Source: Podochytrium sp. JEL0797
Taxonomy: Eukaryota; Chytridiomycota; Chytridiomycetes; Chytridiales; Chytriomycetaceae
Length of the DNA stretch: 14,197 nt
Direction: 5' to 3'
Assembly: GCA_027596195.1 (NCBI GenBank)
Contig: JADGJG010000687.1
Coordinates: forward strand, 1-14,197
Shown here piece after piece: positions 1 to 13,317 of this stretch (position 1 is its first letter; each line of letters starts with the position of its first letter). The notes beneath the pieces were generated by a model, which did not search any database, was not told where the DNA came from, and saw only the letters and a program-made list of their open reading frames with translations. Made by a program: the position numbers and the translations under genes.

Positions 1-125
1 CACGCCGTGGGTTAACTCCAAACCATCAAAATTTAACCCCTTTGGGTGGGGGGGGGGGGGGCGCCCCCCCCCCCCCCCCCCCCCCCGCCCCTATGAAATC
101 GAAAAATCAAAAGTAGGAATATTAC
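1..125. repeat. Left-edge non-coding stretch with a poly-G/poly-C palindrome
   Basis: Positions 48-61 are 14 consecutive G. They are followed by CG and then 23 consecutive C (64-86), one G and four more C. The two runs are complementary and would fold into an almost uninterrupted G:C hairpin. The rest (1-47 and 92-125) is ordinary AT-rich sequence with no reading frame. This part probably lies in the 3' flank of the leftward gene that ends at 126. Such a structure is hard to sequence or assemble, so a misjoin or length error here is possible. Confidence 0.8.
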
Positions 126-1488: not shown

Positions 1489-2151
1489 TTATGATTTTCG
1501 AAACCGATACAACGCAACATGATCCCCAATAAACTCCTCATCCCCTTCACTCGCAGCCACAGGATTCTGCCGCTTCACATTCTTGGACTTGAACCCCCTC
1601 TCCTTCATCAACTGCAAAAAGTGCTCCGAAACGCGTGGATCGCGATGTTCATGGCCGATCCAGACGTCTGTCTTGCGGTCGGATAAGGCTGTGATCGTGT
1701 CGACGAGTTTGACGACGGCTTCCATCGAGAATACGACGTCCGCACCCACGACCATATCGAACGGGGCAGATCGTGCGATTTCGGCGGGAATCACGGCAGG
1801 ACTGGACCATTCGAGTGGCATAACGGAACATTGAGACGACGTGGCGTTCGAACCACTCTTGATCAAATTCTGGCCCGCATTCTGCCTCAACGGATTCAAC
1901 ACATCAGGATGATCAATATCCGTAAGCACCACATTCGCCCCAAGTTGAGCACACACGATCCCTACAACACCAGTCCCTGAACCGAGGTCGATGCACGACT
2001 TTCCCGTGAGCGAGAGTTTGAGTTTGTTGGATTCCGCGGCGAGATGCCTCGCAAGGGCGACACCGCCTTCCCAGACTGTTGTGCCGGATTCGTTGGATTC
2101 CGTGTTGGTGTTGAGAGTTAACGAGAGCGCAGGGGTGATGGAGATGTGCAT
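1489..2151 (-). CDS. METTL21/EFM6-type protein-lysine N-methyltransferase (family 16)
   Basis: This is a seven-beta-strand SAM-dependent methyltransferase of the METTL21 group (methyltransferase family 16), which methylates lysines on proteins such as elongation factors and chaperones. It is intronless, 220 residues from the ATG at 2151. Visible motifs, in order: the family signature VWEGGVALARHL near residues 26-37; the SAM-binding motif I IDLGSGTGVVGIV near 54-66; the acidic post-I loop LTDID near 76-80; and GADVVFSMEAVVKL near 136-149, in the place of the family's DxxY-type motif. The C-terminal HVALYRFRKS looks like the family's final strand. An in-frame ATG at 2184 would add 11 residues, but it lies 6 nt from the divergent IF-3 start, so 2151 is preferred. 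The substrate cannot be read from sequence; EFM6 (eEF1A lysine) is the closest fungal analogue by motif only. Confidence 0.9.
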   Translation of the reverse strand: MHISITPALSLTLNTNTESNESGTTVWEGGVALARHLAAESNKLKLSLTGKSCIDLGSGTGVVGIVCAQLGANVVLTDIDHPDVLNPLRQNAGQNLIKSGSNATSSQCSVMPLEWSSPAVIPAEIARSAPFDMVVGADVVFSMEAVVKLVDTITALSDRKTDVWIGHEHRDPRVSEHFLQLMKERGFKSKNVKRQNPVAASEGDEEFIGDHVALYRFRKS

Positions 2152-2190
2152 TTCCGGATGCACGCAGGTTCGAAAAAAAAACAAAACAAA
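2152..2190. promoter_or_regulatory. Divergent intergenic region, methyltransferase / mitochondrial IF-3
   Basis: Only 39 bp separate the two opposed start codons. The segment contains an A-rich tract (about 2173-2190) just before the IF-3 ATG. The two transcripts must share a promoter or have overlapping 5' ends. No TATA-like element is evident. Confidence 0.4.
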
Positions 2191-3260
2191 ATGATATCTG
2201 CGGTGTTACGAACAACCCCTCGGCGGATCCCGGCCCTTCCATTCTTCCTCGCCCCGTTGCGATTCAAAACCACGACCTCTACCCCAACCCGCACCATCAA
2301 CCCCAAAGGCCCCACAGCCGCCAACGGCCTCCGCAACGGAGATATCCCATTCAAATGGATCGAACTGGACGGTCCCGGAAAGACAAAGCACGGCAACATT
2401 CTTCTTTCAGAGGCGTTGAAACTGGTTCAAGGAACGTTGCAGGATATCGTTGTTGGTGTGTATTGATTGGTTTCGCCACTTCCCACTTTCTAACCAACCC
2501 TGTCCTCCTGTAGTTGATTGCGCGCAAAAAAACCCATATTGTCGAATCGTGGCGACAGATCAAACCGAAAAACTCGCCCACGCAGCAGGTGAATAGTAGA
2601 ACCGAAACCAAAAACATCAAACCAACGCGTTAACCCTCCCTTCCCTCCCCCCCAACAGCAACCGCCGCCAAACTCCTCGCCTCCCCCAAAAACCAAGACC
2701 TCCTCCCCCAATTCCCACACGTCTACCTCGTCGGACACGGGATCATCGAAACCCCGTTAGCCCTCGCGCGTCTTGAATCGGGGCAAGACCTCGTCCTGTT
2801 GACGATCGGATCCGTTGGCAGACCGATGCCACCCGCGGCCAAGATTGTGGACCGCGCGCAACTGTTGGCGGCTGTGGAGTTGGGGAAGAAGGCGTACAAG
2901 AAACCTACTGCCGCGGCGTCGAGTGGGAAAGCACCGGCGGTGTTGTTGGCGCATAAACAGATTGTAAAGGATATCGAAATCAAGACAGCGATTGGGACGA
3001 ATGATTTATCCGTCAAGATCAAAAAATGCGGGGATCTGTTGCGGAAGGGGTACAGTGTGCAATTGAAGCTCAACGATACGCTCAAGAGTTCCAAGAAGGC
3101 AGCGGAGGTGTTGGCGAGTGTGAAGGCTGGGTTGACGGAGTCTGGGTTCAAGTTTGATGTGACGGAGAATGCTAAGCCTGTAAAGGCGGTGGTTCCTGGG
3201 AAGGAGGTGGGGGAGGATAAGGACAAGTATCGAAAGTTGTACATGATTCGGGCAAAATGA
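2191..3260 (+). CDS. MTIF3: Mitochondrial translation initiation factor IF-3, apparent double N-domain
   Basis: IF-3 keeps mitochondrial ribosomal subunits apart and checks start-codon selection. Exons are 2191-2455, 2514-2588 and 2659-3260. Introns are 2456-2513 (58 nt) and 2589-2658 (70 nt), both phase 1. Total is 942 nt, 313 residues. The first ~45 residues are Arg/Pro/Thr-rich with no acidic residue, fitting a mitochondrial presequence. Residues ~49-110 resemble an IF-3 N-domain: NGDIPF, ALKLV, then QKNPYCRIV at the place of the family's PPVCRIMD. Residues ~133-195 show the pattern again: HGIIETPLALARL, GQDLVLL, PPAAKIVD, AYKK. The C-domain follows from ~214 (KDIEIKTAIGTNDLSVKIKK and DLLRKGYSVQLKL). 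The usual RFRGRE motif is replaced by a divergent LNDTLKSSKK-like stretch, as in poorly conserved fungal (AIM23-like) factors. The gene converges on the nonaspanin gene with 24 nt between stops. Confidence 0.82.
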
Positions 3261-3284
3261 AGATTGGGCGAGACAGTTTGAATT

Positions 3285-5699
3285 TTAATCGAGTTTGATG
3301 TTTTTGTAAATGACGCGAACGAAGCGACGGGCAGAATAATGACTGACGAAACCTGAGTGAGAAGGGTGGAGTGTTAATTCGAGAGAGAGAAACGCGTTAC
3401 GAGTAGTGAGAGTTTTACCCAAAATCAAAAATATGCCAAAACACATCAGCGCAGTGTATCCGAAATACCACGTCGTCTGGAAGATGCCGTGCATCCTGTA
3501 TGATACAAAAATGGGTCAAAACGCGATCAAACAAATCAATCGAGCAAATCCAACTTACTTTGTTCGCGCGTAAAAGTAGTAGATGGAGTACAGGAAAATG
3601 TATCCAGCCGTGGACCCCCCAGACAGGAAAATGATCCAGTTCCAGCGATGATTTTCCGAGTTGAGAAGGAAATCTAAAAAAATGTTACGAGGATTTGTCC
3701 ACATTTCGCCAGGAAATTCAAAAAAACGATAAGCACTTACAGGTCGAAACAACAGACACACAACACGTCACGATAATCAGAATCAAGAACACCAACTATT
3801 TGTCATCGCAGAAGCGCAAGAGAAGAAAATTCAGTCAAATTCCCTAAAACCCCACTCCTTCGCCACCGAAACAAAAACAAAACCAAAAAAACTCACCAAC
3901 ATGAACCCAAACACATAATAACTCCGATACGCCCAAAACGACGTGAAAATATAATACATTTCAATAAAAATCGCCCCAAACGGCAACACCCCACTCGCCG
4001 CCACAACCACCACCGGATCCGCGTACCACTCGCTTTCCGGAATCGGTCTCGGGATCGGGTTCACGCGACACACGGCGTCCTTGTTGACTCCGTGCCAGTT
4101 CTTTCCGAGCACGACACCGAGGAGCGAGAGCGGGAGGACGACGAGGGCCCATATGAGGAGGATGGAGAGCATGGATGTGAATGGGATGGCGCGGGACGAG
4201 TTTTGGTAGATGGAGATGAAGTTGATGAGGAGGACGCAGGTTCCGACAGTGCCGGGCCAGATGCCTGAGGAGACGAATACGAGACGGACCCAGTTTTTGC
4301 CGCCGTTGCGGGTGTAGTAGGATCCTGCGTAGAAGGCCGAGAGGATGGAGGAGATGGCGTAGAAGAAGATGGCGATGGAGATGGTGTGTCCGTTTCTGGG
4401 GTTGGGGGGGGCGAAAGAGGTTGAGTATGAGACGCGACTTATCCCGAACTTCGCGACCCACTCGCGACCTCCCATGGTTCCCAAAACCAGATTAAAAAGC
4501 ACTCAACTCATTCTCCACATCCGCCAAAACAGCATACAAAATCACAATCAACGCCAAAATCCCCAACTGCAATCCACTCCCCAACAACCCGGCCAACGCC
4601 GTCAAATGCATCGGTGGTCGAAACACGTCCCCGTGCACTTGTTTCCAGCCATACTCGTCGCTCAGATCCGAGTCGAGGAACCCGCCGTCTTCGCCAATCA
4701 CGTTGTCGTAGCGAACCATGTCCTTTCGGAGAGTCCGCATGAGGATGATGACGACGAATCCCATGGTGAGGAGGACGATCATGGAAGAGTTGGCGATGGA
4801 GAACCAGTGGATCTGGGTTTGGGGGGGTCGAATTAAGGCCCGTTTCGTAGACTGGCCGCTGATCGTACCTTATTTTCAAAGAACGTAATATGGTTCTTGT
4901 ACCGCTCCTCAAATGAATCTTTCGTCTCCTCCCACACGACGGAATAAGTGAATTCGACGTGTTGCACCGCCGTCGCGGCTCCCTCCGCGACCGAGTCGAC
5001 TTCCGATTCATCCTTCAACGGCACCTTTTCAGCCTCAACTTCAACATCAATAATTCGATCTTGGTTGTATTTGAATCGGAATGTTTTGTGGGCGTACAGG
5101 AATCGCTTTGGCGGTGTTGTGGTTGAATCAACTTCGCCAATATAACCGTAGACAGGGAGATCGTCAATAATCATCTTGTACCAGTAATGTCTATCGATGG
5201 CAAAGTGGAAATCTCGCAGCGAGTCCTTGTTCAGATTGGTTGTGCATACGACCTTGTTGTCCACGGGAACTGCATTTGCGAAATCAGGCGTCAGGTCGAG
5301 AGGGAGACTAGATGGAACACGAGCAACTCGCCTCTGAAGTCAATTTCGATGCCTGGGAATTCCATGTTGACTCCTAACAGGGCCTCGCCCAAACTCTCGT
5401 GGCGATGGGCCACCACGGCATCGCCTTTGCAGAAGGGGAGTTGGAAATAGTCGTATGTTTCCTGGCGGTTGGCGTAGGGCCCGATGCCGTTGAGCCAGGG
5501 GACCTAGTGATCTTTCTATCAGGGGAAACGACAAAAGGTAATCTAGGGAAGGAAGTGGGATACGCACAACTTGCTCATGGTCCTAGGGGAAAGCGTTAGA
5601 ACGTATATAGGAGGTATATAAAACACTCACCTCGTAGCGATGCGAATGCTCGTCCGCTTTGGCAACGAGGGCCAGCAGAAGCAGCAGAAACGATTTCAT
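3285..5699 (-). CDS. TM9SF1-type nonaspanin (EMP70 family), ten exons
   Basis: Nonaspanins are Golgi/endosomal proteins with nine membrane spans that help sort membrane proteins. Exons: 5699-5631, 5582-5568, 5503-5332, 5269-4869, 4812-4538, 4395-3897, 3795-3741, 3673-3559, 3495-3419, 3352-3285. Total is 1746 nt, 581 residues. The protein starts with a signal peptide (MKSFLLLLLALVAKA). The lumenal domain has NGIGPYANRQETYDYFQLPFC, then DDLPVYGYIGE near 175. The first span begins at residue 220 (IHWFSIANSS). Family hallmarks follow: GWKQVHGDVFRPP, RPIPESEWY, LPFGAIFIEMYYIF and HRWNWIIFLSGGSTAGYIF. The tail YKNIKLD matches the family's COPI/Golgi-retention ending. Oddities are a 15-nt second exon and a GC-AG intron (5331-5270). 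The intron 4537-4396 is the least certain: a donor further on would add residues before NGHTIS. The subfamily call rests on the ELYYIF-like and SGGSTAG segments. Confidence 0.93.
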
Positions 5700-5728
5700 C
5701 TCTTTGACCAAAAAAATAACTTTGGCGA
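5700..5728. promoter_or_regulatory. Very short bidirectional promoter/5' UTR region
   Basis: The nonaspanin ATG (5699, -) and the PPP4R3 ATG (5729, +) are separated by 29 bp that include a run of seven A. Both genes are well identified at their N-termini: a signal peptide on one side, MTDLTRVKVYQL on the other. Transcription of each must therefore start in or beyond the other's 5' region. Start sites cannot be placed from the sequence. Confidence 0.6.
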
Positions 5729-8700
5729 ATGACGGACCTCACGCGTGTCAAGGTGTACCAGCTGGACAACGAAGGAGTGTGGGAAGACAAGGGCACTGGG
5801 CATGTGGCGGTAACCGCTCTTCTCTCTCTCTTTCTCTCTCTAACACTCCACCAGATCTCCGAACTCGTCTGGATACATGTCGAGCACGAGGCACCGCCAG
5901 CCAGCGAAGAAGATGGTCCCCTGCCTCTCCTGCTCAAGACAAAGATCAAGAAGGACGTGGACTTTATCCGCCAGCAGGGTAACTGCTTCGCATTGCGATA
6001 GAATCAAACACTAACAACACCTCCAGACACCCTCATTGTCTGGACCGAGGATGACGGCAGGGACATGGCCCTCAGCTTCCAGGACCAGGATGGATGCTGC
6101 GAAATGTGGTGCGTATCCAGCCACTCCTTGCCCCCTCGCCCAACGCCACACTTTAAGCCGAGAGATCCCCCGATTCATTCCTCCTTGCTGGATATATGTG
6201 ATTTATGCTGTACTCTGCGTGCTGTGAAGCCCGTGCGAACGCTGCCTGGATTTGTTATCACTCGAAAATGCCAACCCAACTGCGGAGGCCCCATGTCAAC
6301 CAAACCAGACCCTTTCCCATTCGAATTCGGCTCCTGAATCCTTCACTGGACGCACCGCATTGATACGAAAAACGCCCCCTCATCCCATACAGGAACACCA
6401 TCCGCGACATCAAAAAGCAGCTCAACGGGACAGACCCCGACGGCGACAGTGATCTGCCACGCCGTCTGGAAGGTTCACAACCATACCCTATTCTGTCGCT
6501 TGTGCTGATCCAAAACCGGTTGTTTCCCCCGCCAGAAGACGAATCACCGCCCGACGATCCCATGCAATCAGACACGGGAATCGTGCTTCCAAAACCATCC
6601 ATGGCGACCATCAAAGAGATTGAAGAGACTCTATTTGCGGCATCGAAAGGGGCGTATGGTCGCGCACAGTTGGGGCGAGCTGTCTTGCAAGATGTAATGT
6701 TTTTTGTAACGCGGAGGCGAGACTTTGTTTTATTCATTCTTCGGATTCTTTAGAATTATCCCGAGAAGCTGATCCCGTTGCTCGAAATGTGTGAAGATTT
6801 GGAGAGCCTGGACGAACTGTATTCCTTGTCGCACATTGTGAAACTGATTGGTATTTCAATCTTGGATTTTGGGGGAAGCTGAACTAATCCAATTCCTTTC
6901 CTTTTCCCTACGCGACAGTATTCTTGAACGACCCTAAAATTTACGAAATCATTCTGAAAGACGACGTGTTTCCGTACATGATGGGAATGTTAGAATGTGA
7001 GTTTCCTTGCCCCGAAACGCGAAACGTTGCAATTCTAATCCCAATCCGTACAACCAACTCACGCAACTCCTTCACCGTCCAATAAAACTAAGACGACCGC
7101 GAATACCCCGCCGCTAAATCCAACTACCGCCACCAAACCCAAACCGCACAATTCAAACAACTCCTCCCCATACCCGACGCCACCATCGCGTCCAAAATCA
7201 TTCAAACCTACCGCCTCCTCTTCCTCCGCGACACGGCCCTCGCGCGCATGCTCGACGACGCCACCTACGCGTCGCTGAACAGCATGGTGTTTTGCAATCA
7301 GGTCGATATCGTGGGATGGTTTGTGGTTGGGGCTGGGGAAGAGTATTTGGCCAAGATGATTGGGGTGTTGAATCAGGAGGAAGATGTTGGGGAGGAGGCG
7401 AAGGAGGTCAAGAGGGAGGATGTGGTGTTGTTTTTGCATGAATTGAGTGGAGTTGCGAAGGGGATGCAGGTTACTTTGAGGGCGAATTATTATCGGTTTG
7501 TTGTTTTCTTGTTGCGGGGTGCGCGACGCGTTTTTGCAGGTGCGGGGGTTGGCTGAAGCGTGAGTTGTATTTTTTGCAGGACAATGGCAAAGCTTGGACT
7601 TTTTGCAATCTTTGATTACACGCTCGTACATGAGGAAATCAAGGTGCGGTTAGCTGCTACGGCGATTTTGGCGTCGATTCTGGATCACGACCCGTCGCTG
7701 GTTCGATCCTTCTGCTTGGCACAGGTAACCCGATTGTCGCTTGTGTATCACAATCGGAATCTGGTTTACTTAAAATGCCCTCTAGATGAAACAAAACCAA
7801 CCGCAACTCCTCATCAACCTCCTAATCGACCGATTCCTGCACGACCCAGACCCAGGCCTCCAATCGCAACTCTGCGAACTCATCCGCATCATTCTCGAAA
7901 CCGACGACGCGTCAACACTCTCGTCCGCCGTTATTTCCAGCGATTCCGAAATCAATTCGTTCCTTGACCTCTTTTACGACAAATGCATCCTCCTCCTCGC
8001 CGCGCCTATGTATTCCTTCGACGCCACCACTGTTGTGGAATTACGGGACCCCCAATCAACCCTCTGCGCACACATCTGCAGCCTCCTCTCCTTCATTGTC
8101 AAAAGCCACTCCTACCGCAGCAAATATTATATCCTCGGCAACAGCATCACGATGCAAATCGTGCATTTGCTACGGGCCCCCGAAACGCATGTCAAGTTGG
8201 CGGCGTTGCGGTTTTTCAGGACGTGTGTGGGCATGAAGGATGAGTTTTATAACCGGCATTTGGTCAAGTGTGATTTTTTGGGGGCTGTGGTTGCTTGTTG
8301 GGAGGGGACAGGGGGGAAGTACAATCTGCTGAATAGTGCGTGTTTGGATGTGTTTGAGTATGTAAGGAAGGTGAGTTGTTGTGTCTTTTTTTTTGGGGGG
8401 GGGGGGGGGTTGAATGGGAGGGGGGTGGTTGACGCGTTTTCTTGATTTGGTAGGAGAACATCAAAAGTCTCGTTTCGAATCTCGTGCAGAATCATAAGGC
8501 TGCGTTTGAGAATGTCACGTATGTGAGTACATTCAAGGATTTGATTCTGCGGTATGAGCAGAATCAGGAAGGACCTGTGGCGGGTCTGGGCGCCGATGAC
8601 GAAAGGTAACTCTTGCCCCCCATCAATGTTTGATGCAGCATGGGGCATTCTGACGTTTTGATTTTTCAGCACCAAACCGTCCGCCGCATCCAAACCGGAC

Positions 8701-9237
8701 GGATACGCTCGTATTGATAACGACGAAGAAGCCTACTTCAACGACTCGGATGACGACGAATCATCCACCTCCACCACTTCCCCTACGACCAAACAACCCG
8801 CTTCTCCACGTCCCGCCGCTGATACACCCGTTTCCATCGAACCCTGCACTACCCCGCCGCGTGCTACTACGGGAGGCAAAACGGTTCCTTCGGCCGTTGT
8901 GTTGTCCATTTCGACGGAGAACGTGGGCAACCCGAGTCCACGCATGAAACGCAGCGCGTCGCCGTTGGGGTTGGTAGATTACGAGGATGACGAAGAAGAC
9001 GAGGACGTGGATATGTTTGAGATGGCGTTGTCAAAAAAGAAAACGTTGGCGTCACCCGTGAGTGGGGTTCCTCCACCGCCCGTGCCGGTGGTGGTGAATG
9101 GGGGTGGCGGGAAGATTTCGTTTTCGTTGAATAAGGTTGCGGGTGGGGGTGTGGGGTTGATGGGTCCTGGGGCGGGTGCGAAGAGGAGGAGGACGGGGTC
9201 ATTTTCGGGGGTGGAGGAGGTGGGGATGGATACTTGA
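5729..9237 (+). CDS. PPP4R3: Serine/threonine protein phosphatase 4 regulatory subunit 3 (SMEK/Psy2)
   Basis: This subunit directs protein phosphatase 4 to substrates in DNA-damage recovery, the cell cycle and metabolism. Exons: 5729-5809, 5855-5978, 6027-6108, 6393-6693, 6754-6850, 6919-6996, 7093-7495, 7580-7724, 7786-8370, 8454-8605, 8670-9237. Total is 2616 nt, 871 residues. Residues 1-~105 form the PH/EVH1-like domain: RVKVYQL, W.DKGTGHV, QQDTLIVWTEDDGRDMALSF. The SMK-1/armadillo region follows: PEKLIPLLEMCEDLESLDEL, IVFLNDPKIYEIIL, FKQLLPIPD and RTMAKLGLFAIFDY. It continues through KPSAASK to an acidic tail with LGLVDYEDDEEDED and a KRRR basic patch, as in animal and yeast homologues. 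All 11 junctions keep phase. Intron 3 (6109-6392, 284 nt) is much longer than the others (45-96 nt). Intron 1 (45 nt) is a multiple of three without a stop. Intron 9 (8371-8453) holds a T9/G15 homopolymer block. Confidence 0.95.
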
Positions 9238-9573
9238 TCAATAAGGGGGGTGGGGAGGATTGTATTTTATTTTTTTGCTCCGGGGGTGAGAGGTTTGGAA
9301 ACACTGCAAAGTGAGTGTGTGTGACGTATGTGTTTTGTCGGATGGAATAGATTATCTGTTTATTCTGCTGAATGGATTGAAAGTGGATTGAGAAGTGGAA
9401 ACGAGAAACACATCCTCTCACCCTTTCTATGAAACTTGTGTCAGCTCTATATTCTGATTTTTAATCTTTATTCTTTGGGAGTGGAGAGAAGGGGGACCAG
9501 CCCCTCAAGTCACTCACTCTCATATAGCTCGAAAGGAAAAAAGAAAAAGAAGTGGGGAAAACAAAACGAGATT
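9238..9573. other. Intergenic region between convergent genes
   Basis: This 336-bp stretch holds the 3' flanks of PPP4R3 and the CAP gene. It is T/G-rich at the left and ends in a purine-rich tract (about 9530-9558). No reading frame with family resemblance and no RNA gene was recognised in it. Confidence 0.6.
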
Positions 9574-10500
9574 TCAATTCCCATTCAACCAACTCGACCC
9601 CACCCAATTCCCAGCCGGAAAATAATCACATACCAACACCTCACAAAACTTGAACCTCGTTCCACTCCCAAACGCCTTGGCACACCCAACCTCCTTTGTC
9701 GTTGCCCACAACATCTGTGTAGCGTGGTTATACAACCCAGGTGCAACCGATTCATCCGTCCACCCTTTCACAAGATCGCTCATGGGCGTGTTGTATAAAG
9801 GATACGTTGCGCTCATTTGAGACAAGTTCTGACCAACCCCGTTTTCGAGGTTTCCATGTTGCAACACGCACCCGCTGGCTCCGGCCAAAATCTGGGCACG
9901 GATTGCAGCTTGTTGCGCGAGGGTGGGGTTGTATGTGAGTTGGGTTGAGACTCCGTGTTGGGCGCGGTACGTGTTGTGGAGGGTGAGGAGGTCGGATTGG
10001 TCCTTGGGTGTGATTTGGGTGGCGTCTGGGGAGGTGGGGGCTGGTGGACGGCCACGAGATGGAGCTTGAGGGGCGGGAACGGGTGCTGGTGCTTTCGGAG
10101 CGGGGGGTGGAACGGGGACCGGTGGTGATTCAGGAGCAGGAACAGGTTCGGGAGCTGGAATAGGAGCCGGGGTTTCAGGAGGTGGAATCGGTTCGGGAGA
10201 TGGAATAGGAGCCGGGGGAGGTGGAGGAGGAGCGGGTTCCTCCATTTTTTCTGGCTGTGGGGCTGGAGCTGGAGCGTTCTCGACTTCCGGCTGCGGGGCT
10301 GGAGCTGGAGCTGGAAGAGGCGGAACCGGGGCAGCAGCAGTGGTGGCAGCTGGAACATACACTGTAGTGGTCGCGATTGGGATGGTCGCGGCGATTGGGG
10401 CCGTTTGGGCTGGGACAGATGGCGGAGTGTAATTGGGCATGCACTTCCATCCGGCTTCACAGAGAGACGACGCGATAAGTGTGAGGAGGAGCACTTTCAT
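9574..10500 (-). CDS. Secreted CAP/SCP/PR-1 (Pry-like) protein with long proline-rich linker
   Basis: This is an intronless 308-residue secreted protein. A signal peptide occupies residues 1-~16 (MKVLLLTLIASSLCEA). A Thr/Ala/Pro-rich region runs to ~165 with many PAP, APEP and PPPPPP repeats. This resembles an extended wall-spanning or glycosylated stalk. The CAP domain fills ~168-308: LLTLHNTYRAQHG, QHGNLENGVGQNL, the CAP1 signature NHATQMLWATTKEVGCA, and CAP2 at FCEVLVCDYFPAGNWVG. Candidate tetrad residues are His215, Glu250 and His259. The usual GEN glutamate is Gln224 (GVGQN), a substitution I also associate with insect antigen-5 proteins. CAP proteins bind sterols or act extracellularly in defence and virulence; which applies here cannot be told. 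The start at 10500 gives a clean signal peptide. The gene converges on PPP4R3. Confidence 0.92.
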   Translation of the reverse strand: MKVLLLTLIASSLCEAGWKCMPNYTPPSVPAQTAPIAATIPIATTTVYVPAATTAAAPVPPLPAPAPAPQPEVENAPAPAPQPEKMEEPAPPPPPPAPIPSPEPIPPPETPAPIPAPEPVPAPESPPVPVPPPAPKAPAPVPAPQAPSRGRPPAPTSPDATQITPKDQSDLLTLHNTYRAQHGVSTQLTYNPTLAQQAAIRAQILAGASGCVLQHGNLENGVGQNLSQMSATYPLYNTPMSDLVKGWTDESVAPGLYNHATQMLWATTKEVGCAKAFGSGTRFKFCEVLVCDYFPAGNWVGSSWLNGN

Positions 10501-10747
10501 TTTTTGGAATGGTTTGTGATTGAGCCAGCTTTGATCAATTTGAGGTCGACCAATGAATTGGGGGAATCAGTGGAAATCAATTACATTTTTTTTTGTAAAT
10601 CAGAAGTAAATCAATCAGAGGGGGAGATTAAATCATGTTTATTTTATCAGCCCACTTAATTGGAATTATGTGGTTGGGTAGTAAACGCATGAGAAGCGAT
10701 GCGTGTCGGTGGGAGCGCGTGCTGGGTACTGATATACCACCGATATT
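10501..10747. other. 5' flank of the CAP gene, no gene seen
   Basis: This AT-rich stretch contains a T9 run near 10587-10595 and a small imperfect hairpin (GCAT/ATGC arms near 10687-10702). It probably includes the CAP promoter. No convincing coding or RNA feature is visible. Confidence 0.45.
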
Positions 10748-10960
10748 AACACATCTCTCATATTGCAAAAACGCGATGAAAACTATACTATACAACTCGA
10801 GAACGCTGTAGCAACAAAAGCGCACACATACGCAACAAGTAGTTACCAACAACCCATCCTCGCCGCCTCACAACTCAATTCCCCTTTACAGACACAAAAC
10901 AAACTGTTGGGGTCCGAGATTGCGATGGCAGAGACGCGGGCGGAAATGTTATGGAATAAT
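10748..10960 (-). pseudogene. Decayed, internally deleted duplicate of the CBS gene's 3' end
   Basis: This segment is a diverged copy of the neighbouring CBS gene's terminus. Positions from about 10748 (AACACATCTCTCATATTGC) match those from about 10966 (AACACCTCTTTGATATTGC). They continue in parallel through TACAACTCG, AGCAACAAAA, CACACATAC and CTCAATTCCCCTT to the position of the CBS stop codon and its last codons. Directly afterwards, at about 10910-10945 (GGTCCGAGATTGCGATGG), the copy jumps to sequence matching about 11410-11445 inside CBS exon 3 (GGTCCGTGATTGCGATGG). Roughly 270 bp of coding sequence are missing from the copy. The relic cannot encode the CBS C-terminus in frame. I judged similarity by eye; an alignment would fix the exact ends. 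Confidence 0.75.
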
Positions 10961-10965
10961 CAAAA

Positions 10966-11094
10966 AACACCTCTTTGATATTGCAATACGCGGATGAAAG
11001 CAAAACAAAAAAATATACAACTCGCGACCCACTGAAGCAACAAAAAGCACACGCACATACACCCTCAAACCACCAGATTTTCACTCACAAAAAC
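10966..11094 (-). repeat. Parent copy of the duplicated 3' flank of the CBS gene
   Basis: This is the immediate 3' flank of the CBS gene (probable 3' UTR), paired with the diverged copy at about 10748-10885. Shared blocks occur in the same order: CTCATATTGC / TTGATATTGC, then TACAACTCG, GAAGCAACAAAA / GTAGCAACAAAA and CTCAATTCCCCTT. The two copies are direct repeats about 220 bp apart, which fits a tandem duplication followed by decay of the distal copy. Confidence 0.7.
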
Positions 11095-12478
11095 TCAATT
11101 CCCCTTCACTGGCACAAATAAACTCAACATATCTCCCATCGTCACCACCCCCACCGGTTTGTCCCCTTCCCCCTCCTCCACGACCCAAACACGATGAATG
11201 TGGTCCCTCAACATCAAATTCACTGCATGTTCGACCGACTGTTTTCCATTCACGTCTCTCACTTGATCCGCTTTCACACTCTCGGGGCCACGTCCGCGGG
11301 CTTCGAGGAAGGAAAAGACGGGGAGGAGGAAGGATTCGAGGGAGGCCATGTCGGCTGTGATTCCGCGGAGGTCGGAGGCGGACAGGTTGGCCACCATCTC
11401 ACCCGAAACCGGGTCCGTGATTGCGATGGCGGAAACGCGGTGGATGTACATGACGCGGAAAGCCGCGAGGGCTGTGAATGTGGAAGGGACGGTGATGAGG
11501 CGGGGTTTGTGTGGGGTCGTGGTGGCCGGTTGGTTGAGATCGAGGTCGAGGTTTCTGGTGGTTGAGCGGGGGAGGTAGGCTTTGGAATAGTGTTGGGCGG
11601 AGTGGATGGAGGAGGTGAGGAGGTGGGTCATGGAGTTGGGGGCGATGGTGTCGCGGAAGGTGAAGAGAAAGTCGAGGAGGTCGCTCTGTGTTTGTTTTGC
11701 GCAGTGGTATGTGTTAGAAAATGTGTGTGGTGTGCATGTGTGTAGTGTGTGGGTGAACAGTAATACCTGCGTAATCATGACGATACACCCATCCTTGTCA
11801 CTCGCGTTCTTGTCACCGACTTCAATCACTTTCGTCGCCTGATCCACATCAATAACAAGCATGCGGTGATATGGCGGTGTAGTAATCATTTGCAACAGCG
11901 ACGACACGGGTTCAGTGGAATGCAACGTCCACGACATGCTCGATTCCGCTGTGTACCCAATCAGTTGCTTGACGGGAGTCGAAAAGTACGCTTCCGCTTG
12001 GTCGTTGAGATCCGTGAAGCCCTTTGCGGTGGTTCCTTGGTTGGAGGGGGTGTCGAGTTTCCTGTGGGAATTGGCGTGAGAAGGAGGGGAACAACACCCG
12101 CGCCACTAACTCGAGCCACAGGAACAAACAAAACACTCACTCGAGGTCGTCAAACATCTTTTGAAACACGGTCCACGCGAGGACATCGTAAATGCTCACG
12201 ATCCCCGTGTATTTCTTGCCCTCCTCATCCTCGACGTACACGGCAACAGCGAGAATGTTGTTCTCATTCAAGACCTTGAGTACGTCACGCAGTGGGGTGT
12301 CGTGTTCGACGGCAATGAGGTGCAGGCTGTTGTCGGGTCTTCTCGAGCGCTTGTGGGCGAGGAGGGCCGAGATCGGAGTGGAGGAGAGAGCGTCGTAGAT
12401 GTCTTTGGTGGCGAGACGGAGGGACTCGTCGCGCTTGGTGATGGCTTGGTCGGGTGGAGTTCTCGATGCGGTGTTCAT
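11095..12478 (-). CDS. Four-CBS-motif (double Bateman) protein
   Basis: CBS pairs bind adenosyl ligands such as AMP, ATP or SAM and regulate partner proteins. Exons are 12478-12141, 12061-11767 and 11685-11095. Introns are 12140-12062 (79 nt, phase 2) and 11766-11686 (81 nt, phase 0). Total is 1224 nt, 407 residues. Four CBS-like units are visible. The first is ~35-110 (ISALL, LRDVLKVLNENNILAVAVYV, YTGIVSIYDVLAW). The second is ~140-212 (VSSLLQMITTPPYHRMLVID, VIMITQ-like end). The third is ~271-322 (TALAAFRVMYIHRVSAIAI, VANLSASDLRGI). The fourth is ~350-403 (VEHAVNLMLRDHIHRVWVV, PVGVVTMGDMLSLF). The order resembles an AMPK-gamma/Snf4-like or SDS23-like architecture. I could not assign it to either, and nothing N-terminal adds an enzymatic domain. 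A decayed copy of its 3' end lies just downstream. Confidence 0.88.
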
Positions 12479-12839
12479 TCTGTTTTTTCGTTTGTTTGCA
12501 TCGCGGTGGCGCGTTTTCCCTTTTCGCCGATGCCCGGAGAATCATGGCTGGTCATCGTGACAACGGGGAAAACAAACCCACATGGGAGGAAAGGGAGCGC
12601 GAGTCAATTAATCAAGTTTGCTTCTTTGGTTGCAGTTGCGAGTGCGATCAAAAGTAGAATTGGGTTTGGGTGGAATTCATTAATGATGTGCCTCCTTCGC
12701 TAATCGCCTCTCCCAATATTTCCTCTTTTTTTTTAATTCTCTCTCATTCGCGAAAGTACCCGGCAAGATGATTACAATAGTGAGAAAGAATTCTTTTTGT
12801 TTGTTTTCTATTTTTTTGGCTTTCGGACAAAAAGACGGC
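12479..12839. promoter_or_regulatory. Divergent intergenic region, CBS protein / CENP-S
   Basis: These 361 bp separate two outward-facing starts and should hold both promoters. Visible elements are a GC-rich GGCGCGTTTTCCC block (about 12507-12520), AATTAAT- and ATTAATGAT-type AT palindromes, and T-rich tracts at about 12724-12735 and 12790-12820. An ATG at 12768 is in frame with the CENP-S start. It would add a hydrophobic 24-residue leader not expected on a nuclear histone-fold protein. Confidence 0.5.
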
Positions 12840-13317
12840 ATGGACTTTTCCGACGACGAACTCGCTGCGGCGGAGACTGAAGAGACGCTGGTGAGACCAG
12901 GCGCCCTTGGCTAGGCGACACTAGGCGACACTAGGCGGCACTAGGCGCACTTGACTAGGGACTCTAAAGACACCTTCCTAGCGCCTCCAAGCGGCGCTTC
13001 ACTTTGCCGTGTCCAAAATCATCGCTCAGAACCTCGCTGCCAACGGCCACAGCGGCACCAAAGTGACTCCGCAGTTCATCCACGCTGCCGCAAGCACCGT
13101 CTGGCTGCAGACCCTGACCCTGGGAAAGGATGTTGACGCTTTCGCGAAACACGCGAAGCGAAGCGTTGTTTCGGTTGATGATGTGAAGCTGTGTGTGAGG
13201 AGGAGCGAGAATGTGGTGCGTTGCGTGTTTTATTCCCTTTCGCAGTTAATCAGTGAATATCAGGTCGACCACTTGACCGAATACGCCGCGAGTATCAAGG
13301 GGAGCAAGAAAAAATAA
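12840..13317 (+). CDS. MHF1: CENP-S / MHF1 histone-fold protein
   Basis: CENP-S pairs with CENP-X at kinetochores and, as the MHF complex, with FANCM-type helicases at stalled forks. Exons are 12840-12890, 12982-13215 and 13264-13317. Introns are 12891-12981 (91 nt) and 13216-13263 (48 nt), both phase 0. Total is 339 nt, 112 residues, the usual family size. A short acidic N-terminus (MDFSDDELAAAETEE) leads into the histone fold: RLQAALHFAVSKIIAQ, then TPQFIHAAASTVWLQTL, DAFAKHAKRSVVSVDDVKL and CVRRSENV. The AKHAKR..V..DDVKL..RR pattern is the family hallmark. If intron 2 is removed, the end reads VRRSENVVDHLTEYAAS, which fits the last helix better than the unspliced reading. The 48 nt also stay open in frame, so a retained-intron form of 128 residues is possible. 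The protein ends in a Lys-rich tail. Confidence 0.9.
12911..12950 (+). repeat. 10-bp tandem repeat inside CENP-S intron 1
   Basis: Four consecutive 10-bp units of CTAGGCGACA type are present: two identical, one with GGCA and one with GCAC. They are followed by a partial ACTAGGG. The array fills nearly half of the 91-nt intron. Every unit carries a CTAG that resembles the true acceptor used at 12979-12981 (CCTAG). Confidence 0.85.

What the first reader, a model, noticed from the sequence alone, without database searches (positions are those of the whole stretch)
1489..13215. Exon-scale C-to-G sawtooth: exons begin C-rich and end G-rich on the coding strand
Hand counts for the first versus last 60 nt of exons (coding strand, C/G): IF-3 exon 3 (2659-3260) 33/4 then 5/22; PPP4R3 exon 7 (7093-7495) 27/7 then 6/22; PPP4R3 exon 9 (7786-8370) 23/6 then 4/23; CENP-S exon 2 (12982-13215) 24/12 then 5/25; CBS exon 3 (11685-11095, minus) 29/7 then 3/26. 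Nonaspanin exons 5 and 6, the intronless CAP gene and both other CBS exons look the same by eye. Short exons (for example PPP4R3 exon 2) show it weakly. Because it follows transcription on both strands and resets at exons, replication or single-strand chromosome skew cannot explain it. Exon definition by C-rich/G-rich enhancers, codon ramps, R-loop or co-transcriptional mutation, or RNA-structure avoidance are candidates. It could also serve as a gene-finding signal.
Basis: seen in the sequence. Interest (0 to 1): 0.75.

Follow-up and report, generated by a model that had tools for sequence, protein, structure and literature searches.

The report
Exon-by-exon C-to-G skew in chytrid
In this chytrid fungus most long exons start rich in C and end rich in G, strongly enough to show in the encoded proteins; the pattern restarts at introns and gene ends, and it looks the same from either DNA strand, so it need not come from transcription direction.

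Summary
The five hand counts are exact. In 314 kb of the same genome (Podochytrium sp. JEL0797, named through near-identical deposited proteins), 263 of 315 predicted exons of at least 200 nt rise from C-rich to G-rich. Exon position explains this far better than gene position (coefficients 0.263 and 0.035). It survives moved boundaries and a test without gene models (128 of 158 ORFs against 72 of 158 random placements). All codon positions and amino-acid use are affected. A gene-blind segmentation puts 51 G-to-C and 7 C-to-G switches at introns, but 32 and 160 within exons.

Gene-scale C-to-G skew is known in unicellular fungi (PMC3315797). My searches listed no paper on an exon-scale reset. 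Best mechanism, at 0.35: break-and-resection-like mutagenesis centred on gaps between exons. Pre-mRNA selection remains possible.

The parts
2659..3260 (+).
   Evidence: counts; exon
4508..4812 (-). nonaspanin (EMP70) internal exon: tooth 23/9 to 3/23
   Evidence: gene 97% identical to deposited HDU98_010145
3897..4395 (-). nonaspanin internal exon: tooth 27/6 to 6/16
7093..7495 (+). PPP4R3 internal exon: tooth 27/7 to 6/22
   Evidence: gene 99% identical to deposited Platinum sensitivity protein
7496..7579 (+). intron after that exon
7786..8370 (+). PPP4R3 internal exon: tooth 23/6 to 4/23
8371..8453 (+). intron with a run of 15 G (8395-8409)
8670..9237 (+). PPP4R3 last exon: tooth 20/13 to 5/31
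9574..10500 (-). intronless CAP-domain gene: weak C start, strong G end (17/15 to 4/24)
11095..11685 (-). CBS-domain gene, last exon: tooth 29/7 to 3/26
11767..12061 (-). CBS-domain gene, internal exon: 23/11 to 9/20
12141..12478 (-). CBS-domain gene, first exon: 25/11 to 14/16
12982..13215 (+). CENP-S internal exon: tooth 24/12 to 5/25
1551..2151 (-). lysine methyltransferase (Methyltransf_16) gene, long exon: 25/6 to 9/23, with a second dip near 1861-1980; the predicted join to exons at 835-1464 is doubtful
5729..5978 (+). PPP4R3 first exon as predicted: an exception, 13/21 to 19/14; it probably includes a retained intron

Best explanation
A nucleotide-level, strand-symmetric pressure is centred on the gaps between exons (introns and intergenic spacers). 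It favours G over C on the strand left of each gap and C over G right of it. Shown here: the phase, the sign, the symmetry and the reach (mostly within 300 nt into exons, and tens of nt into long introns). Inferred: the gaps are preferred sites of DNA breakage. 5'-to-3' resection exposes the 3'-ended strand on each side, and lesions in that single strand are bypassed by translesion synthesis that inserts C (REV1-type; recalled), giving C-to-G, with some C-to-T, on the exposed strand. The exposed strand is opposite on the two sides, so every gap becomes a G|C step and every long exon a C-to-G tooth. Protein constraint damps the pressure but does not stop it.
For: Sign and shape match the break-resection signature in human meiotic hotspots: C>N and A>N on the forward strand, the complement on the other side, no asymmetry in the central 100 bp each way, C>G prominent (PMC7615360, passages). 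The pattern is reverse-complement symmetric (even part near zero; strand-blind ORFs). Steps of the same sign occur at tandem, convergent and divergent gene pairs (0.19-0.29, n=68). The exchange is mainly C/G: in 224 exons of at least 300 nt, first against last 150 nt go from C 0.327, G 0.217 to C 0.206, G 0.316, with T 0.222 to 0.247. All neighbour contexts take part to a similar degree. Non-coding DNA takes part: in introns of at least 200 nt (n=41), +0.16 at 30-60 nt from the donor and -0.20 at 60-35 nt from the acceptor. Fourfold sites shift about twice as much as codon positions 1 and 2. Amino acids rise along exons more in Podochytrium than in relatives at the same columns (0.45 against 0.27 close and 0.10 far; 3 chosen proteins, 12 exons). 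The step grows with intron length (0.09 to 0.19, 272 introns).
Against: No break map, chromatin map or mutation data exist here. The reach is much shorter than in the human paper. That paper has A>N as well as C>N, but here A hardly moves (0.234 to 0.230). Exons look insulated: the end skew of a long exon does not depend on whether the next exon is short (0.101 se 0.023, n=31) or long (0.098 se 0.014, n=74), and a model using only flanking boundaries beats one summing all of them (CV R2 0.150 against 0.136), which is awkward for resection running through a 65-nt intron. Steps at intergenic gaps do not depend on gap size. Drops inside long exons are not AT-rich (r=-0.026). Exon bases are in skewed states more often (52%) than intergenic (25%) or intron (26%) bases.
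Confidence: 0.35

Rival explanations
1. Selection on pre-mRNA: C-rich exon starts and G-rich exon ends help splicing, packaging or folding (for example poly-C binders after the 3' splice site and G-run binders before the 5' splice site, or less local structure).
For: Skew is concentrated in exons (52% of bases in skewed states); exons behave as separate units; local folding of real exons (-19.3 kcal/mol per 90 nt) is weaker than codon-shuffled (-22.5, se of difference 0.59) and slightly weaker than synonymous-shuffled (-20.2, se 0.42), 180 windows of 60 exons; the step rises with intron length.
Against: Single-exon genes show it (9 of 11 of 200-1200 nt); it reaches 200-300 nt; it goes with up to 1.6-fold changes in amino-acid use; cognate exon-end/next-exon-start pairing barely exceeds non-cognate (-0.74 se 0.41 kcal/mol); it continues into long introns beyond the splice signals.
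Confidence: 0.25
2. Transcription-start-linked C skew in both directions: every gap is nucleosome-poor and fires sense and antisense initiation, and the known C-bias near fungal start sites acts from both ends of each exon.
For: C-bias at start sites is reported for fungi (PMC3315797); bidirectional firing explains the reverse-complement symmetry; steps at gene ends are as large as at starts (convergent 0.29, divergent 0.19).
Against: Needs initiation at 50-90 nt introns; no RNA data here; the cause of the start-site skew is itself unknown.
Confidence: 0.2
3. The known gene-scale fungal skew (C-biased 5' end, G-biased 3' end), seen as exon-scale because the quoted exons are long.
For: Same sign; single-exon genes fit it; skew extends about 80-120 nt outside genes.
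Against: Internal exons show the full tooth (136 of 164); the gene-position term is 0.035 se 0.018 once exon position is in the model.
Confidence: 0.05
4. Artefact of gene prediction, base calling or assembly.
For: Exon borders come from my own ab initio finder without RNA support; 9 of 28 contig starts carry poly-C runs.
Against: The three gene models compared match deposited proteins at 97-100%; the tooth appears in ORFs without gene models; base-calling errors cannot know exon borders.
Confidence: 0.03

Closest known systems
[quoted passage not shown] parts 1-2 of 4 and term passages read)
   Same: C-biased start, G-biased end, extends outside the coding sequence, changes amino-acid use.
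   Different: There the unit is the gene; 'exon' does not occur in the text and 'intron' once. Here the unit is the exon, the gene term is small, and fourfold sites shift more than codon positions 1 and 2, whereas they report similar magnitude.
Splicing-coupled strand asymmetries in introns (Touchon et al. 2004, NAR; content recalled, paper not held; seen only as a citation)
   Same: Skew strongest near splice sites and fading inward in long introns.
   Different: As recalled, it concerns introns and splicing; here exons carry it and single-exon genes have it.
Opposite exon and intron asymmetries in human and mouse (Zhang et al. 2008, as described in the review PMC10030826, passage)
   Same: Strand asymmetry separates exons from introns.
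   Different: There each has one sign along its length and intronless genes lack it; here the sign flips within each exon and intronless genes have it.
Introns as compositional barriers (Ressayre et al. 2015, PMC4684703; abstract and outline read)
   Different: G+C content in plants, not C-against-G skew with a repeating tooth.
Strand-asymmetric mutagenesis at meiotic breaks (PMC7615360; passages read)
   Same: Sign, mirror symmetry around a centre, prominent C>G.
   Different: Human hotspots, flanks of about 2 kb with off-centre peaks at 700-800 bp, A>N as well; here exon-scale, A flat, and no break data.

Membership tests
Gene-scale fungal GC skew (PMC3315797) | C-biased 5' ends and G-biased 3' ends of genes | tested here: met
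   first 30-nt bin of first exons -0.26, last 30-nt bin of last exons +0.27
Gene-scale fungal GC skew (PMC3315797) | the gradient runs along the gene as a whole | tested here: not met
   gene term 0.035 se 0.018 against exon term 0.263 se 0.025 in genes with at least 3 exons
Gene-scale fungal GC skew (PMC3315797) | AT skew flat and almost always positive | tested here: not met
   A/T go from 0.234/0.222 in the first 150 nt of exons to 0.230/0.247 in the last 150; a small effect
Gene-scale fungal GC skew (PMC3315797) | similar effect at fourfold and non-degenerate sites | tested here: not met
   means of the first four 30-nt bins at each end, internal exons: fourfold -0.32 to +0.20, position 1 +0.12 to +0.38, position 2 -0.35 to -0.12
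Splicing-coupled intron asymmetry (Touchon 2004, recalled) | bias maximal at intron ends, fading inside | tested here: met
   41 introns of at least 200 nt: +0.21, +0.16, +0.08 going in from the donor; -0.32, -0.20, -0.07 going in from the acceptor
Splicing-coupled intron asymmetry (Touchon 2004, recalled) | depends on splicing | tested here: not met
   single-exon genes show the tooth: fourfold -0.33 to +0.30, n=15
Break-resection mutagenesis (PMC7615360) | C lost left of a centre, G lost right of it | tested here: met
   + strand step positive at introns and at all gene-pair types; composition only, not mutations
Break-resection mutagenesis (PMC7615360) | A>N changes on the same strand as C>N | tested here: inconclusive
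   A 0.234 to 0.230 from exon start to end; right sign but nearly flat
Break-resection mutagenesis (PMC7615360) | flanks of 1-2 kb, off-centre peaks at 700-800 bp | tested here: not met
   in internal exons of at least 600 nt skew peaks about 30-210 nt from the edge and is down to -0.04/-0.06 and +0.09/+0.10 at 300-360 nt
Break-resection mutagenesis (PMC7615360) | programmed breaks at the centre | not testable with these tools
   no break map

The most novel reading that the evidence does not exclude
Introns and gene borders in this fungus are recurrent break or repair centres whose strand-polarised C-to-G mutagenesis has written a mirror-symmetric compositional tooth into most long exons and bent protein sequences along exons; base composition would then be a genome-wide fossil record of where breaks occur, readable in a single assembly.
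Probability: 0.25. Interest if true: 0.88.

Novelty: new variant of a known kind. Interest (0 to 1): 0.62.

Why it matters
Skew gradients in fungal genes have been read as a signature of transcription phases. Here the same sign pattern restarts at introns and is blind to transcription direction, so the transcription reading does not follow, and may not follow for the gene-scale case either, since that pattern is also unchanged by reverse complement. The force goes with shifts in amino-acid use (P 0.62, T 0.66, E 1.54, G 1.58 end/start), so it could bias phylogenies, selection tests and gene finders. It makes an open question (what causes opposite skews at gene ends) directly testable in chytrid relatives.

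Tried and rejected
Rejected or not supported: codon ramp (internal exons and long introns show it); uniform R-loop or transcription-coupled bias (even part near zero); context-specific deamination (C falls to 0.42-0.59 and G to 0.39-0.58 of its level with every 5' or 3' neighbour tested); specific pairing across introns (-0.74 se 0.41 kcal/mol, n=185) or between an exon's own ends (-0.82 se 0.38, n=224), both at most weak; avoidance of cryptic splice sites as the main cause (AG o/e 0.74 in the first 60 nt fits, but GT and AG frequencies rise at exon ends, 0.044 to 0.068 and 0.039 to 0.060, though GT o/e is 0.85 there); AT-rich hidden gaps inside long exons; a second copy of the window stretch 7000-9300 to read substitutions from (only itself found). 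My first own-genome family search used an accession recalled wrongly and rang nowhere. tblastn of the PPP4R3 exon in phages gave nothing. I looked at no DNA of a related fungus: the collections offered are prokaryote, virus, phage, plasmid or metagenome, and I did not scan the viral or prokaryote ones for fungal DNA. Comparison is protein-level only. Gene models have no RNA support, and some joins are doubtful (methyltransferase gene 835-2151; first PPP4R3 intron).

Dropped rows: slope statistics use exons of at least 200 nt (315 of 542). The segmentation counts use skewed segments of at least 40 nt no more than 150 nt apart. The ORF test leaves out ORFs over 1500 nt and those at stretch ends. 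The comparative test uses exons of at least 200 nt of 3 genes; I chose 9, 10 and 9 relatives out of 120 listed per search; the helicase and PPP4R3 genes were picked partly because they show the tooth; relatives not marked close (Entophlyctis and Physocladia among them) were counted as far; most of the slope in relatives comes from the helicase (0.21-0.44), while nonaspanin relatives are at or below zero. The E. coli baseline is 17 coding sequences of one region.
Full report
What was checked. The window is C653:1-14197 of a 24.4 Mb, 995-contig genome. Its nonaspanin and PPP4R3 genes are 97% and 99% identical to deposited proteins of Podochytrium sp. JEL0797 on a contig of the same 14,197 nt, and a helicase gene from another contig matches a deposited protein of that strain at 100% over 1198 residues. 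The genome is therefore taken as that of this chytrid fungus. The five hand counts in the finding are exact.

Data and gene models. I fetched thirty 10-kb stretches of the same genome, 314 kb with the window, and wrote a self-training gene finder (GT-AG introns of 40-400 nt, order-4 codon-phased model).

The exon tooth is widespread. GC skew rises along exons of every kind. In internal exons of 600-1200 nt it goes from about -0.2 to +0.3 (30 of 32 rise). Over all exons of at least 200 nt with 30 nt trimmed from each end, 263 of 315 rise: single 12 of 16, first 43 of 54, internal 136 of 164, last 72 of 81; on + strand genes 115 of 140, on - strand genes 148 of 175. By gene, 106 of 115 genes with a long exon are positive. 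In genes of at least 3 exons the within-exon rise is 0.142, against 0.000 sd 0.011 when sequences are rotated within genes and 0.033 sd 0.009 when exon lengths are permuted (1000 draws each). With both terms in one regression, exon position carries 0.263 se 0.025 and gene position 0.035 se 0.018. Short exons (under 150 nt) show 0.087 se 0.032.

It is not a coding effect. Codon positions 1, 2 and 3 all shift. At fourfold sites of internal exons C goes from about 0.43 to 0.24 and G from about 0.20 to 0.37, while A and T move little. The change is similar with every neighbouring base. Amino acids follow: end/start ratios run from P 0.62 and T 0.66 to E 1.54 and G 1.58, Spearman 0.82 with G-minus-C at codon positions 1 and 2. 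Across three proteins (12 exons), Podochytrium residues rise along its own exons by 0.45 se 0.08, residues of close relatives at the same columns by 0.27 se 0.08, and those of more distant fungi by 0.10 se 0.07; the differences are 0.18 se 0.08 and 0.35 se 0.10. The pressure therefore seems to act on nucleotides and to have changed proteins. These three genes were not a random sample, and most of the slope in relatives comes from one of them.

It is blind to transcription direction. A profile that goes from C to G reads the same on the complementary strand. Splitting profiles into even and odd parts leaves an even part within about 0.04 of zero, while the odd part reaches 0.14. When 158 long ORFs are read on the + strand whatever their own strand, 128 rise (-0.10 to +0.09), against 72 of 158 random placements. 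At gene borders the + strand steps from G to C for tandem, convergent and divergent pairs alike (0.19-0.29, n=68).

Where the steps are. A three-state segmentation that uses no gene models gives 117 G-to-C and 190 C-to-G switches within 150 nt. Switches touching introns are 51 G-to-C and 7 C-to-G; switches wholly within exons are 32 and 160; switches touching intergenic DNA are 34 and 23 (Fisher p 2e-23 for intron against exon). Skew fades within about 300 nt into exons, over about 80-120 nt outside genes, and in introns of at least 200 nt (n=41) from +0.21 to +0.08 going in from the donor and from -0.32 to -0.07 going in from the acceptor. In long introns the switch therefore lies inside the gap; in short introns the first part is near zero. 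The step grows with intron length (0.09 for 40-90 nt, 0.19 for over 150 nt; standardised coefficient 0.033 se 0.010 with exon lengths controlled), and at intergenic gaps it is about 0.24 at any gap size.

Patches. Inside long exons GC skew is correlated over about 200 nt (r 0.52, 0.36 and 0.17 at 30, 90 and 180 nt, falling to zero by 300 nt). Shuffling codons within exons leaves r about 0.19-0.27 at all lags, from differences between exons, so only the short-range excess and the fall are informative. Fourfold sites and codon positions 1 and 2 are each autocorrelated and correlate with each other (0.21 at lag 0; part printed before its error). A set of 17 E. coli coding sequences gives r from -0.01 to 0.08. 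Some long exons hold two teeth with no predicted intron between them. Exon bases are in skewed states twice as often as intron or intergenic bases (52%, 26%, 25%).

Mechanism. An account should be mirror-symmetric, centred on gaps, exchange mainly C with G in every context, act on long introns and gene flanks, and override amino-acid choice. Break-resection mutagenesis with translesion bypass has this sign and symmetry: at human meiotic breaks C>N and A>N dominate on the exposed forward strand and the complement on the other side, with C>G prominent and no asymmetry in the centre (PMC7615360, passages). That REV1 inserts C opposite lesions is recalled, not from a call. Against it stand the short reach, the nearly flat A, the apparent insulation of exons, the lack of dependence on intergenic gap size, and the absence of any break data. 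Selection on pre-mRNA explains the concentration in exons and the insulation, but not the single-exon genes or the cost to proteins. Bidirectional initiation at every gap is a third account with the right symmetry.

Relation to print. The gene-scale form is known in unicellular fungi (PMC3315797; parts 1-2 of 4 and term passages read). That paper's text has no occurrence of 'exon' and one of 'intron', and it lists Batrachochytrium dendrobatidis among its species. Searches listed no paper on an exon-scale reset, as far as titles and abstract starts show; subscription papers are mostly not held. I file this as a new variant of a known kind.

Noticed in passing
window 49-86 and the starts of L001, L003, L009, L014, L015, L016, L017, L019: 9 of 28 contig starts carry a C-run of at least 10 within 150 nt, and 2 (the window again, and L027) a G-run; possibly poly-G read tails at contig ends, or real G-run|C-run junctions that break assembly.
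   Followed up: partly
L014:7160-8619, L028:1348-3690, L004:7101-8468: Long exons with two C-to-G teeth and an interior drop but no predicted intron; candidates for lost introns.
   Followed up: partly
L029:4011-7821: A 3.8-kb predicted exon that is C-rich nearly throughout, without a tooth.
   Followed up: no
L020:29-1815 (minus): Extreme tooth, 90-nt bins from -0.9 to +0.8.
   Followed up: no
L022:8495-8690: Cluster of long G-runs (29, 12, 23) followed by a C-run of 22.
   Followed up: no
window 9574-10500 (minus): Intronless CAP-domain protein with an apparent signal peptide (by eye) and a long proline/alanine-rich stretch.
   Followed up: no
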